The notes under the pieces are model-generated. The model was not told the origin of the DNA, did no database searches, and saw only the letters and a list, made by a program, of their open reading frames with translations. A DNA stretch of 64,000 bases from Candidatus Aegiribacteria sp. MLS_C (GTDB lineage: Bacteria; Fermentibacterota; Fermentibacteria; Fermentibacterales; JCC-6), in the NCBI GenBank assembly GCA_002030045.1, contig LQBI01000005.1, forward strand, positions 1-64,000, given 5' to 3'. Positions 1 to 4,823 of the stretch are shown here, piece by piece; positions within the stretch are counted from its first letter, which is position 1; each line of letters begins with the position of its first letter. The position numbers and the translations under genes were made by a program.

Positions 1-2070
1 ACCATCTCGCCGTATTCCTCCAGCTCGGCGGCTCCCCCGCGCAGGCGGGGATGGACCGGGCGCGGCGCACCTGCGGAAGGGCGAGGCCGTGGCTCCCCCG
101 CGCAGGCGGGGATGGACCTTGATCTGATGATGATGTCAGCGGCACGCGTGCGGCTCCCCCGCGCAGGCGGGGATGGACCGTTCCCGGGGAAGGACACACC
201 GGACGGCTCCGCGGCTCCCCCGCGCAGGCGGGGATGGACCCGGCGGCGGTATCCCCTGGAGCAGATTCAGGCAGGCTCCCCCGCGCAGGCGGGGATGGAC
301 CCAGCAATGCCGCACGATTCCAGTGCTTCGATGAGGCTCCCCCGCGCAGGCGGGGATGGACCGACATTAGTCTTCTACTGGCAACGGCCAAGGAAGGCTC
401 CCCCGCGCAGGCGGGGATGGACCCTGTGGGTACTGTCCGAGGAGATACCGTACCCGGGCTCCCCCGCGCAGGCGGGGATGGACCCAGTATTCCAACTGTA
501 CGAGTTCTTCGGCGAATGGCTCCCCCGCGCAGGCGGGGATGGACCCAGGATACGATGTTTCGTCCTGAGAATCATATAGGCTCCCCCGCGCAGGCGGGGA
601 TGGACCTGGTACCATCTCGCCGTATTCCTCCAGCTCGGCGGCTCCCCCGCGCAGGCGGGGATGGACCTTATCCAAATTATCTCCAGGTCGGATCCTGGAA
701 GGCTCCCCCGCGCAGGCGGGGATGGACCCTCGGTAGCCTCGTCGAAGGCGTAGAGGTCCCGGGCTCCCCCGCGCAGGCGGGGATGGACCCCTAGACTGGC
801 CGCTATGAAAACCGTCGTCGTCGGCTCCCCCGCGCAGGCGGGGATGGACCCCCGGTTTCAGAGCACCCGCCTTCGTAATATATGGCTCCCCCGCGCAGGC
901 GGGGATGGACCCGGCGAAAGCGACACCAAGACTGTCTACCTCAAGGCTCCCCCGCGCAGGCGGGGATGGACCCCGGTGAAGAAATGGTTGAGTGGTGGAT
1001 AAGCGGGCTCCCCCGCGCAGGCGGGGATGGACCCCCGCACATCAAGCGGGGCACAAGTTACCTCCGGGCTCCCCCGCGCAGGCGGGGATGGACCGCATTG
1101 ATGCAGCTATTGCACAGCTTGAACTGGGGCTCCCCCGCGCAGGCGGGGATGGACCCGCGATGCAATCCCCAGGCTTCAAAGATCCGACGGCTCCCCCGCG
1201 CAGGCGGGGATGGACCGTTATCTTGGAGCCATTGGAGGGAATCGGCGGAGGCTCCCCCGCGCAGGCGGGGATGGACCGACAAAGAACCCTGGCACGATAC
1301 GCAAGATACTGGCTCCCCCGCGCAGGCGGGGATGGACCTGCCAAGCCAACGACAAAAGCACATACCTTGTCGGCTCCCCCGCGCAGGCGGGGATGGACCG
1401 GGTGCATGTGGATATGCGACCGCCCGTGGTGGGGCTCCCCCGCGCAGGCGGGGATGGACCGGACGATGACAAAACCACCTGGTATTCGGTCGAGGCTCCC
1501 CCGCGCAGGCGGGGATGGACCTTACACAAGCAAATTTTATCTACATCAAAATAGGGCTCCCCCGCGCAGGCGGGGATGGACCTCCATGGCCAGTGTAGCG
1601 GTCCATACGATGTTGGGCTCCCCCGCGCAGGCGGGGATGGACCCCTGGAACGGCACCGGACGGCGGCATACTCAATGGCTCCCCCGCGCAGGCGGGGATG
1701 GACCGTAGTAAAGCACCAGCTCACGAACTGCCATCGAGGCTCCCCCGCGCAGGCGGGGATGGACCGACGAACTGGCCGGGGCATCTCGATGTTGACCCGG
1801 CTCCCCCGCGCAGGCGGGGATGGACCTTATCAATCCAAATCGGGAAGTGGTGGAATAATGGCTCCCCCGCGCAGGCGGGGATGGACCTTCGGTGAACCAG
1901 ACACTATCCTTGTCAACCTCGGCTCCCCCGCGCAGGCGGGGATGGACCCAAGGTGCCTTATCTCCAGGCCCTTGAGCGTGTGGCTCCCCCGCGCAGGCGG
2001 GGATGGACCCGTAATCCCCGGCCATCGTAGAGCAGTCGAAGGGGCTCCCCCGCGCAGGCGGGGATGGACC
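1..2070 (+). CRISPR. Type I-E-like CRISPR array, 34 repeats, left end cut by window
   Basis: A 28-bp repeat begins at 30 and recurs every 61 bp without exception, the last copy being 2043-2070. That makes 34 repeats, 33 complete 33-nt spacers and a partial spacer at 1-29. Every repeat copy I read is identical. Each contains a 6-bp GC stem (CCCCGC / GCGGGG, loop GCAG) followed by ATGGACC, which matches the layout of E. coli-type I-E repeats (stem, then an 8-nt 5' handle). This predicts plus-strand transcription, leader and cas genes to the left of the window, and 2043-2070 as the oldest, leader-distal end. No cas gene lies in the window. The spacer at 1-29 duplicates part of the one at 607-639. 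Open frames across the array are artefacts of the 61-bp period. Confidence 0.98.
607..639 (+). repeat. CRISPR spacer duplicated at 1-29
   Basis: The last 29 nt of this 33-nt spacer are identical to bases 1-29, the visible part of the spacer preceding the first repeat. The copies lie 610 bp apart, exactly ten repeat-spacer units. The spacers to the right of the two copies differ, so any larger duplicated block must extend to the left of each copy. Confidence 0.95.
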
Positions 2071-2132
2071 GTGGAACTATAAGGATGACAGCTATCCCGC
2101 TGCAGGATACCGAGCACATGTAGGGTATGACA

Positions 2133-2489
2133 TTACCTGACGATGGTCCGGGAGCCGTGTCCGGAGGGGCAGGCGACCGTTATCAGTGCGGGGGTCTCCT
2201 GAACAATGTAGGACTGCTGTGAGAGGGGGCAGACGGGGAGCGTGTCGGGAAGAAGATCGATGACGCTGGTACCGCCGTTCTCCATGGACGCTTCGTAAAT
2301 CAGGCCTTCCAGCTCGAAGGCGAGGGAGTCGAGCCTGGCCCTGCAAGCCTGGACGGCAAGCTCCGTTCGAATGCTCTCCAGCTCATCTTCGCTGATGAGT
2401 CCCCTGCTTGTCTCTCTGGCGCAACTGGCTGGAACAACAAGGACCGTCATCAGCGTAAGCACCACCGGAAGGAAGACAGCCCGTCTCAT
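2133..2489 (-). CDS. Small secreted protein with pilin-like C-terminal Cys-Pro motif
   Basis: A 118-residue protein of unknown function. Residues 1-23 form a hydrophobic signal sequence ending PASC; a lipoprotein is possible, but the -3 residue (Pro) is a poor lipobox. The second half contains CPLSQQSYIV followed by ITVACPSGHGS. This recalls the paired CP...CP.GHG pattern found at the C-termini of some minor pseudopilins and related secreted proteins in diderms. The start overlaps the rpe stop as ATGA, so it is the last gene of the minus-strand train and probably translationally coupled. It ends about 60 bp from the CRISPR array, which converges on it. The family assignment is only a resemblance. 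Confidence 0.7.
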   Translation of the reverse strand: MRRAVFLPVVLTLMTVLVVPASCARETSRGLISEDELESIRTELAVQACRARLDSLAFELEGLIYEASMENGGTSVIDLLPDTLPVCPLSQQSYIVQETPALITVACPSGHGSRTIVR

Positions 2490-3136
2490 CTCAGTCTTCT
2501 GATGGCCTCGGCGGGGTCATGGGAACCTGTTATGAAGGAACCGCTCACCAGGATATCCGCGCCTGCCTGAACCAGAGCCCGGGAGTTTGAGTCGTTAACT
2601 CCCCCGTCCACCGCCACCAGGGCCTCCCCGCCTCCGTGGGAGTCCAGGAGTTCCCTGGCCATCCGCACCTTACCGTGCAGGTGCGCCATGTGCTCCTGGC
2701 CCCCGTACCCGGGATTGACGGTCATAATGAGCACCAGGTCAACGGACTTCGCCTCCCAGCGCAGCATGTCCAGGGGCGTGGAGGGGTTGAAGGCCAGTCC
2801 GGCCAGGCAGCCGGCTTCACGTATCCTGCAGAGCAGGCGGTCCATATGTGGGTCCACCTCGGCATGAACGGTTATGTATCCGCATCCTGCCTCAGCGAAA
2901 GCATCGATTAGGTCTCCGGGCCTGCTCACCATCAGATGGGCGTCCACCGGTATGTCCACCGAGGAGCATACCGCCGCCGCCACTCCGGACCCCACCGTGA
3001 GAACGGGGACGAAGACACCGTCCATCACGTCAAGGTGGATCATGTCCGCGCCTGCGTCCTGCAGACTCCTGGACGCAGGACCCAGCATGCCCTGGTCGCA
3101 TCCAAGTATCGAAGGGGCCACAAGCACCCGGCTCAC
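2486..3136 (-). CDS. rpe: Ribulose-phosphate 3-epimerase
   Basis: Interconverts ribulose 5-phosphate and xylulose 5-phosphate in the pentose phosphate pathway. The 216-residue TIM barrel starts with a GTG that overlaps the upstream PASTA gene stop (GTGA), giving an N-terminus MSRVLVAPSILGCD typical of the family. Visible family motifs are APSIL, DAGADMIHLDVMDGVFVP (phosphate and metal-binding HxD region), DAHLMV, ITVHAE, VLIMTVNPGYGGQ and VAVDGGVN near the end. Length is normal (about 220). The open frame continues upstream through the PASTA gene, but that extension has no homology and is a shadow. Gene order RsmB, PASTA protein, Rpe resembles the conserved rsmB-pknB-rpe neighbourhood. The window also holds a transketolase at 62379. 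Confidence 0.95.
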   Translation of the reverse strand: MSRVLVAPSILGCDQGMLGPASRSLQDAGADMIHLDVMDGVFVPVLTVGSGVAAAVCSSVDIPVDAHLMVSRPGDLIDAFAEAGCGYITVHAEVDPHMDRLLCRIREAGCLAGLAFNPSTPLDMLRWEAKSVDLVLIMTVNPGYGGQEHMAHLHGKVRMARELLDSHGGGEALVAVDGGVNDSNSRALVQAGADILVSGSFITGSHDPAEAIRRLR

Positions 3137-3894
3137 CAGTTGCCCCACTGGCTGTCGGACCTGCCGACCACCACGATGACCGAGTCTCCCGGGGCGTATC
3201 GCGTGCCCGCCGGGGTCATCTGCTCGAGAACCATCCCGTCCTGGACTATGTCGCCCGTGCTCCTCTCCTCTATAACGAGCACCAGGTCGTTGACGGAGGC
3301 TATATCCAGGGCCGCGGACTCGGTCATGCCCACGAACCTGGGCACCCCGTCCCACCCGGTGGAAACCAGGAGCCTCACCGGGACGGTGACCGCCAGGCTG
3401 TCGTACTGCCGGGGACACACGCCGACGACCGTACCCTCGGGAAAAAGCGGATGGGGTATCCAGCTCCTGCCTATTGAGTACAGCTGCCAGTCGGCTATCT
3501 TCTCCTCGGCCTGTACGGCGGACATACCGATGAGTGAATCGGGGTAGTACTGCCTGTAGAGAGGGCCGATGTTCCAGAAGATGCTCACCGGCGCGCCCCT
3601 GGGCGTCATGGAACCGGGAGGCGGGTCCTGCCTGACAACGGTGCCTATGGATTCCATGGGGCCGTACTCTGACCACTGCCCGGCCATCACGAGGCTTGCT
3701 GATTCGATCTCCCTCTGGGCGTCCTGCCTGGTGAGGCCTATGACGTCGGGAACGGTAACGGGAGCGGAGACCGCGCCTATGGATGATATGAACCTGGGGG
3801 TCTCGAAGATCGTCGGCGCGAGTATCAGACCTGTGACAAATGCCAGTAGCGCTCCGGAAACGGCCAGTATGAGGAACCTCACTGCAGGTCTCAA
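3133..3894 (-). CDS. PASTA-domain membrane protein without kinase domain
   Basis: A 253-residue protein with one N-terminal transmembrane segment (about residues 7-27) followed by about three extracytoplasmic PASTA repeats. Signatures are VTVPDVIGLTRQDAQREI near residue 47, VVRQDPPPGS near 85 and a weaker third repeat near 195-245. PASTA domains bind peptidoglycan fragments and usually sit on Ser/Thr kinases (PknB/PrkC) or penicillin-binding proteins. No kinase or transpeptidase domain is present. The gene occupies the place of pknB in the widespread rsmB-pknB-rpe order. It overlaps rsmB by ATGA upstream and rpe by GTGA downstream, so the three are almost certainly cotranslated. A role in sensing or binding cell wall is inferred from the domain only. 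Confidence 0.85.
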   Translation of the reverse strand: MRPAVRFLILAVSGALLAFVTGLILAPTIFETPRFISSIGAVSAPVTVPDVIGLTRQDAQREIESASLVMAGQWSEYGPMESIGTVVRQDPPPGSMTPRGAPVSIFWNIGPLYRQYYPDSLIGMSAVQAEEKIADWQLYSIGRSWIPHPLFPEGTVVGVCPRQYDSLAVTVPVRLLVSTGWDGVPRFVGMTESAALDIASVNDLVLVIEERSTGDIVQDGMVLEQMTPAGTRYAPGDSVIVVVGRSDSQWGNW

Positions 3895-4823
3895 TCCACT
3901 CTCCTCCAGGCGACGGCGAAGAGGCCGTCAATGCCGTGCTCAGGTGGGAATATGCCAATCGCGCCATCGGTGACAAGTTCGGCCGGAGCGTCTAGCGGGA
4001 CCCTGCGGAAGTCATCGCGGCACTCCTCGAACACGCGCACCTGGCCCTGGTTCTCCTCCTCCTCCAGGCTGCATGTGGAGTATACAAGGTACCCTCCCGG
4101 GGCCACAAGCGCGGAAGCCGAGGCAAGCAGCTCCCTCTGGAGGACCGTCATGCCTTCAAGGTAGTCGGCGGACCATTTCCACCTGGCATCGGGGCGCCTG
4201 CGGTAAACGCCTGTATTGGTGCACGGGGCATCGACCAGCACCATTCCGAAGGAACATGCCAGGGGCGGCCGGGTACCGTCGCCTACCAGTGGATGACAGC
4301 CGGTCCAGCCCAGCCTTCGGAAGTTCCCCATCCACCTCTCCATCCTGCCAGGGCTTGAGTCCATGGATACCACTGAGACCGCCGTCTCACCGAGGTGGTG
4401 GGTCTTGCCGCCGGGGGCGGCGCCTATCTCGAGTACATCGAGGCCTGCGGCAAGCCCGGCACATGTCCTGCCCACCAGGGCAGCGGCCTCGTCCTGGAGG
4501 TAGAAGGGGCCGTCAAGCGATTCCAGGGGGCTGGAGCCCGTCCTGGGAAGAATCCTGTAGTCCTGCAGCCAGGACCCCGGCGCCAGGCCTTCTCCTCCTC
4601 CGCCCATGCATGCTCCCAGGTCCGGAATACCGTTGTTCCACCGCATCAGTGCTTCGGTCCTCTCCGGGCCGAACGCTGCGGTCCACCTGTCCACGAGATC
4701 TTCGGGATGGGACCATCTCTCCGCCGGGGAGGCGGAATCCGGGTCGGGCTCCCCTTCCCCGGCGAGTTTCCTGAGAACGGCGTTCACGAGGCCGCCGCCC
4801 CTGTGGCCGAAGAGAGCATCCAC
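3891..4823 (-). CDS. rsmB: 16S rRNA (cytosine-5) methyltransferase RsmB; real N-terminus lies further upstream
   Basis: SAM-dependent enzyme that methylates C967 of 16S rRNA. The catalytic domain is clear: LDVLEIGAAPGGKTHHL (SAM loop), LVDAPCTNTGVYRRRPDARW with the catalytic-region PC motif, and YSTCSLEEEENQ with the second Cys. The only canonical start in frame is the GTG at 4823, but codons upstream still read as the family's NusB-like N-terminal domain: RDRAFALRLLRE, then LRIGAAQLILLDTPPHAAVS running into VNAVLRK. The frame stays open from about 5217 to 4823 with no ATG, GTG or TTG. The true protein is probably about 390-400 residues and begins near 5060-5105, at a non-standard codon (ATA at 5060, or ACG at 5105 preceded by AAGGTGG inside nfu). 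A sequencing or assembly frameshift cannot be excluded. Confidence 0.9.
   Translation of the reverse strand: MDALFGHRGGGLVNAVLRKLAGEGEPDPDSASPAERWSHPEDLVDRWTAAFGPERTEALMRWNNGIPDLGACMGGGGEGLAPGSWLQDYRILPRTGSSPLESLDGPFYLQDEAAALVGRTCAGLAAGLDVLEIGAAPGGKTHHLGETAVSVVSMDSSPGRMERWMGNFRRLGWTGCHPLVGDGTRPPLACSFGMVLVDAPCTNTGVYRRRPDARWKWSADYLEGMTVLQRELLASASALVAPGGYLVYSTCSLEEEENQGQVRVFEECRDDFRRVPLDAPAELVTDGAIGIFPPEHGIDGLFAVAWRRVD

What the first reader, a model, noticed from the sequence alone, without database searches (positions are those of the whole stretch)
1..639. Same CRISPR spacer at two places exactly ten units apart
Bases 1-29 equal bases 611-639, the last 29 nt of the spacer at 607-639. The flanking spacers to the right differ. 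Either the organism acquired the same protospacer twice, which is unlikely with the same ends, or repeat-mediated recombination copied a block that continues left of the window. An assembly join across repeats would give the same picture.
Basis: partly seen in the sequence, partly recalled or inferred. Interest (0 to 1): 0.6.

Follow-up and report, generated by a model that had tools for sequence, protein, structure and literature searches.

The report
Duplicated CRISPR spacer at contig end
An ordinary type I-E CRISPR array in an uncultured bacterium carries the same spacer at a contig's broken end and again ten units further in, most likely an ordinary duplication between the repeats, which only sequencing reads could tell from an assembly error.

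Summary
Window bases 1-57 (29 nt of spacer plus the whole 28-nt repeat) equal 611-667, offset 610 = 10 x 61, and then diverge. Window base 1 is base 1 of contig C5, so nothing lies to the left. The array is type I-E: 34 identical repeats and 33 complete, all different spacers on C5. A 35th repeat sits at the end of contig C8, beside an A/T-rich leader and a full cas3-cse1-cse2-cas7-cas5-cas6e-cas1-cas2 set. The array is therefore broken on its leader side.

The order seen, S10 | S1...S10 | S11, is what a tandem duplication of a ten-unit block between repeats leaves. Spacer duplications are common: 15 of 66 control I-E arrays, 14 of 36 with at least 20 spacers, and 3.3% of spacers in a published survey, where re-acquisition made up 1% of such events. 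A false join or mixed strains cannot be excluded without reads, and the exact contig start fits no duplication model at one k. No protospacer was found. Ordinary; low interest.

The parts
1..29 (+). truncated copy of spacer S10 (its last 29 nt) at the contig end
   Evidence: identical to 611-639; window base 1 = contig C5 base 1
30..57 (+). first repeat on this contig, GGCTCCCCCGCGCAGGCGGGGATGGACC
   Evidence: exact repeat; identity with 640-667 ends at base 57
58..606 (+). spacers S1-S9 with their repeats, between the two copies of S10
   Evidence: nine different 33-nt spacers, period 61
607..639 (+). complete copy of spacer S10
30..2070 (+). type I-E CRISPR array on this contig: 34 identical 28-nt repeats, 33 complete different 33-nt spacers; leader side to the left, trailer to the right
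   Evidence: 34 exact repeats at spacing 61; leader, 35th repeat and type I-E cas genes on contig C8

Best explanation
A type I-E CRISPR array in a Fermentibacteraceae-like bacterium in which a block of repeat-spacer units was really duplicated by misalignment or unequal recombination between identical repeats. In the simplest form the ten-unit block S1-S10 was duplicated in tandem, so S10 of the first copy sits directly before S1 of the second, and then S10 and S11 follow. Short-read assembly could not pass the fork S10-repeat-(S1 or S11), so the contig starts there. Shown: the identity, its limits, the contig end, the array type. Inferred: that the junction is real, that S9 and earlier units are also duplicated, and the recombination step.
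For: 57-nt identity ending exactly at a repeat boundary, ten units apart. The order S10-R-S1 followed later by S10-R-S11 loops back; deletions alone cannot produce it, and PMC7968741 (passages) treats reads of the form spl-DR-spm with l>=m as proof of a duplication and describes contigs stopping at exactly this fork. Duplicated spacers are common: 15 of 66 arrays and 59 of 2130 spacers in the 80 control loci, 14 of 36 arrays with at least 20 spacers (14 of 66 arrays with the settings). PMC11472070 Table 2 (passages): 805 of 24,090 spacers are duplication candidates, 695 of them duplications and 8 reacquisitions. In a graph built from these spacers, arrays with a duplicate break before S1 (a single extra copy only up to k = 87), whereas an array without one does not break at any of the 11 k values from 39 to 141 tested.
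Against: No reads and no sequence left of base 1, so block against single spacer cannot be tested. Shared contig-end stretches elsewhere in the assembly are 95-96 nt, with one of 75 and one of 58 in a 53-nt tandem repeat, while this end lies 57 nt before the divergence. In one search that start needs k = 58, and a tandem block at k = 97 would give 96; so the exact start fits no duplication model at one k. At long offsets, control duplicates are mostly single spacers, not blocks: of 15 pairs at offset 6 or more, 12 are single and the 3 block pairs come from one array. The contig also runs through S10 into S11, where a simple graph would split.
Confidence: 0.6

Rival explanations
1. Assembly or population artefact: the S10-R-S1 junction was made by a false join across the 28-nt repeat, a chimeric read, or a mixture of strains with different arrays, at a contig end where evidence is thinnest.
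For: The array is broken on both sides: C5 starts inside a spacer and C8 stops 3 nt after the first repeat. In the same-genus genome G006 both contigs that hold the repeat end exactly at it, so arrays break here generally. At k = 29 the graph falls into 82 pieces in all four models, the one without a duplicate included.
Against: Of 14 array ends cut by a locus end in the control loci, 9 were long enough to judge and 0 of 9 repeat an internal spacer. The shared stretch is 57 nt, 29 of them beyond the repeat, so the repeat alone is not the overlap. Deletions in other strains cannot put S10 on the leader side of S1.
Confidence: 0.27
2. Independent re-acquisition: the same protospacer was captured again ten acquisitions later.
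For: Type I-E capture gives fixed ends, so the copies would look as they do (recalled). A single extra S10 also forks the graph up to k = 87. Single duplicates far apart do occur in control arrays.
Against: Only 8 of 805 duplication candidates were reconstructed as reacquisitions (PMC11472070, passages). A single extra copy shares only 89 nt and is fully resolved at k = 97, so it would not by itself stop an assembler at the overlap seen elsewhere in this assembly.
Confidence: 0.11

Closest known systems
Spacer or block duplication by repeat misalignment in CRISPR arrays (SpacerPlacer survey PMC11472070; review PMC8047081; M. tuberculosis examples PMC7968741; passages seen)
   Same: Repeated individual spacers or blocks, boundaries at repeats, usually read as duplication rather than second capture.
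   Different: Here only one truncated copy is visible because the contig ends, so block and single duplication cannot be told apart.
Type I-E CRISPR-Cas (E. coli type)
   Same: All eight cas genes match NCBIfam models for type I-E proteins or Cas3, 28-nt hairpin repeat, 61-nt period.
   Different: Nothing important; the Cas3 is above the cut-off of the core and HD domain models but below that of the full-length PRK09694 model.
Array breaks in the same-genus genome G006 (locus L116, Candidatus Fermentibacteraceae)
   Same: Contigs end at the first repeat and at another repeat copy, as C8 and C5 end in the array here.
   Different: No spacer with this repeat was recovered there at all.

Membership tests
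[quoted passage not shown]
   8 of 8 proteins on C8:125-8935 match above at least one curated cut-off
[quoted passage not shown]
   34 exact repeats on C5 at 61-nt period and one on C8 beside an A/T-rich stretch and cas2; hairpin -14.5 kcal/mol, though 21 of 200 shuffles fold at least as well
Spacer duplication by repeat recombination | identical spacer twice in one array with breakpoints at repeats | tested here: met
   57-nt identity that ends at the repeat edge; the left copy is cut by the contig end
Spacer duplication by repeat recombination | neighbouring spacers duplicated in the same order (block) | not testable with these tools
   no sequence left of window base 1
Spacer duplication by repeat recombination | junction supported by reads | not testable with these tools
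   no reads available

The most novel reading that the evidence does not exclude
C8 ends 3 nt (CTA) into its first spacer and C5 starts 29 nt from the end of a 33-nt spacer. If the two contigs really abut with one base missing, the newest spacer would be CTAn followed by the last 29 nt of S10: a second capture of the same target from a variant changed at the end next to the PAM, that is, memory updated against an escape variant. The lengths may agree by chance, and intervening missing spacers are likelier.
Probability: 0.03. Interest if true: 0.45.

Novelty: already known. Interest (0 to 1): 0.1.

Why it matters
It mostly matters as a caution. A contig end inside a CRISPR array is where duplicated spacers stop short-read assemblies, and the spacer count and order of such arrays should not be taken as complete. 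It bears little on biology beyond one more probable case of repeat-mediated turnover of a type I-E array, in a little-studied lineage.

Tried and rejected
Target of S10: no exact 26-mer in viral contigs, no 25-mer in genome contigs, and no match to two degenerate patterns from the reverse strand read as AELEEYGEMVP. No match for the array that looks like a protospacer in phages: one weak hit (31 nt, 90.3%, E 0.6) in two records of one phage. In plasmids 37 records match, 20 listed; I take them for other arrays with a similar repeat, not checked one by one. No shared spacers in 60 genomes searched, the own one among them (matches in the two others are repeat-sized or at 69-74%). No self-target with up to 7 mismatches in window 2101-64000, C5 64001-87601 and C8 1-20000. 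The repeat is not in viral contigs. Rfam has no match in 1-4000. Chance identity is rejected (29 of 29 nt).

Naming the assembler from contig-end overlaps failed: 95-96, 75, 58 and 57 fit no single k. A wider control on contig-end arrays through other genomes was begun and dropped because its listing was too long. The trailer side in G006 (C10, 4,014 bp) shows no match to the window beyond the repeat, so it does not confirm that C8 and C5 adjoin. Paper searches were read as listings only, except the passages of PMC11472070, PMC7968741, PMC4762764 and PMC8047081; PMC4762764 had nothing on the same spacer captured twice in one array in the passages shown.

Full report
Observation. The window begins inside a CRISPR array. 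Bases 1-57 are identical to 611-667: 29 nt of spacer plus the full 28-nt repeat; 58 and 668 differ. The array on this contig has 34 exact repeats (30-57 to 2043-2070), all spaced 61, and 33 complete spacers of 33 nt, all different; apart from the truncated copy no two share more than 11 nt. The 29-mer occurs twice in the own genome with up to three mismatches allowed, at 1-29 and 611-639. The finding is right and is not chance.

Context. The window is bases 1-64000 of contig C5 (87,601 bp) of a 2.98-Mb, 35-contig genome, so base 1 is the physical end of the contig. The same repeat occurs once more in the genome, at C8:4-31 on the minus strand. Beside it C8 carries an A/T-rich stretch (leader) and then genes matching Cas2e, Cas1e, Cas6e, Cas5e, Cas7 (Cse4), Cse2, Cse1 and Cas3, 8 of 8 proteins above a curated cut-off. 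C8 thus holds the leader end and C5 the rest of what is most likely one array (inference: same repeat, no other copies). C8 stops three bases (CTA, read on the array strand) into the first spacer; 0 of 33 complete C5 spacers start with CTA, so at least one spacer is probably missing. Cas1 is 82% identical to that of a Candidatus Fermentibacteraceae MAG (L116), whose contig is G006:C86 of the same genus. There too the contig ends exactly at the first repeat and a second contig ends at another repeat copy.

Sequencing type. One contig end (C7) starts with 59 G, and contig ends share exact stretches of 95-96 nt (C1/C21/C25, C34/C35, C1/C4), 75 nt (C7/C24) and 58 nt (C3/C17, a 53-nt tandem repeat). 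This looks like a short-read de Bruijn assembly (inference). The ends of C28 and C29 read N.

Base rate. In 80 Cas1e loci from genome contigs (the best 80 of 205 relatives) a script found 66 arrays and 2,130 spacers. 15 of 66 arrays hold at least one duplicated spacer, 14 of 36 with at least 20 spacers, and 59 of 2,130 spacers (2.8%) are involved. Of 31 pairs 10 lie in blocks and 21 stand alone (with slightly different settings one search gives 14 of 66 arrays). Of 15 pairs at offset 6 or more, 12 are single and 3 are one block at offset 57. Of 14 array ends cut by a locus end, 9 could be judged and none repeats an internal spacer. Most of these loci are draft genomes, so some of their duplicates may be assembly errors too. 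A published survey gives 805 of 24,090 spacers (3.3%) as duplication candidates: 695 duplications, 43 rearrangements, 8 reacquisitions, 7 independent insertions, 52 other (PMC11472070, passages seen). A duplicated spacer in a 33-spacer array is ordinary.

Mechanism. Reading from the leader, the order is S10 (cut), S1... S9, S10, S11 ... S33. A tandem duplication of the block S1-S10 leaves exactly this at its inner junction. The review PMC8047081 (passages) says repeated blocks are presumed duplications and that replication misalignment between repeats could underlie them; PMC7968741 (passages) calls a loop-back junction proof of duplication and describes contigs that stop at it. A graph calculation on the window's own spacers (four models, 12 k values each) gives: no break without a duplicate at any of the 11 k values from 39 to 141; with a single extra S10, a fork k-1 bases before S1 from k = 39 to 87 and full resolution from k = 97; with two or ten units duplicated, a fork at every k from 39 to 141. 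The contig starts 57 bases before S1, which fits a fork at k = 58, not at the 95-96-nt overlap seen at other ends. So the fork idea explains why the contig ends in this spacer, but the exact start is unexplained. If the final k was about 97, the failure to extend would favour identity reaching into S9, that is, a block; this is inference only.

Against. There are no reads, no left flank, and a contig end where errors gather. A false join or mixed strains remain possible (0.27). Re-acquisition (0.11) would look the same; it is disfavoured by its rarity, not by the matching ends, which type I-E capture fixes (recalled).

Targets. No protospacer was found for S10 and no spacer of this array in 60 genomes searched, the own one included. 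The one phage hit, for another spacer, is weak (31 nt, 90.3%, E 0.6).

Verdict. A real observation with an ordinary explanation, not resolvable on this assembly: probable repeat-mediated spacer duplication in a type I-E array, interest 0.1.

Noticed in passing
L035 (C8) 1-31 with window 1-29: C8 ends 3 nt into a spacer and C5 starts 29 nt from the end of a 33-nt spacer; 3 + 29 is one short of 33. May be chance; it is the basis of the novel reading.
   Followed up: partly
window 2043-2070: The last repeat before the trailer is identical to all others; PMC8047081 (passages) says terminal repeats often carry changes.
   Followed up: no
window 58-2042: None of the 33 complete spacers begins with A (15 C, 10 G, 8 T).
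   Followed up: no
C7 start (L044), C28 and C29 ends (L064, L065, L097, L098): C7 begins with 59 G, as two-colour Illumina reads can give; the ends of C28 and C29 read N.
   Followed up: no
L133: A 126-repeat I-E array in a Deltaproteobacteria MAG with many duplicated spacers, among them a three-spacer block repeated 57 units away.
   Followed up: no
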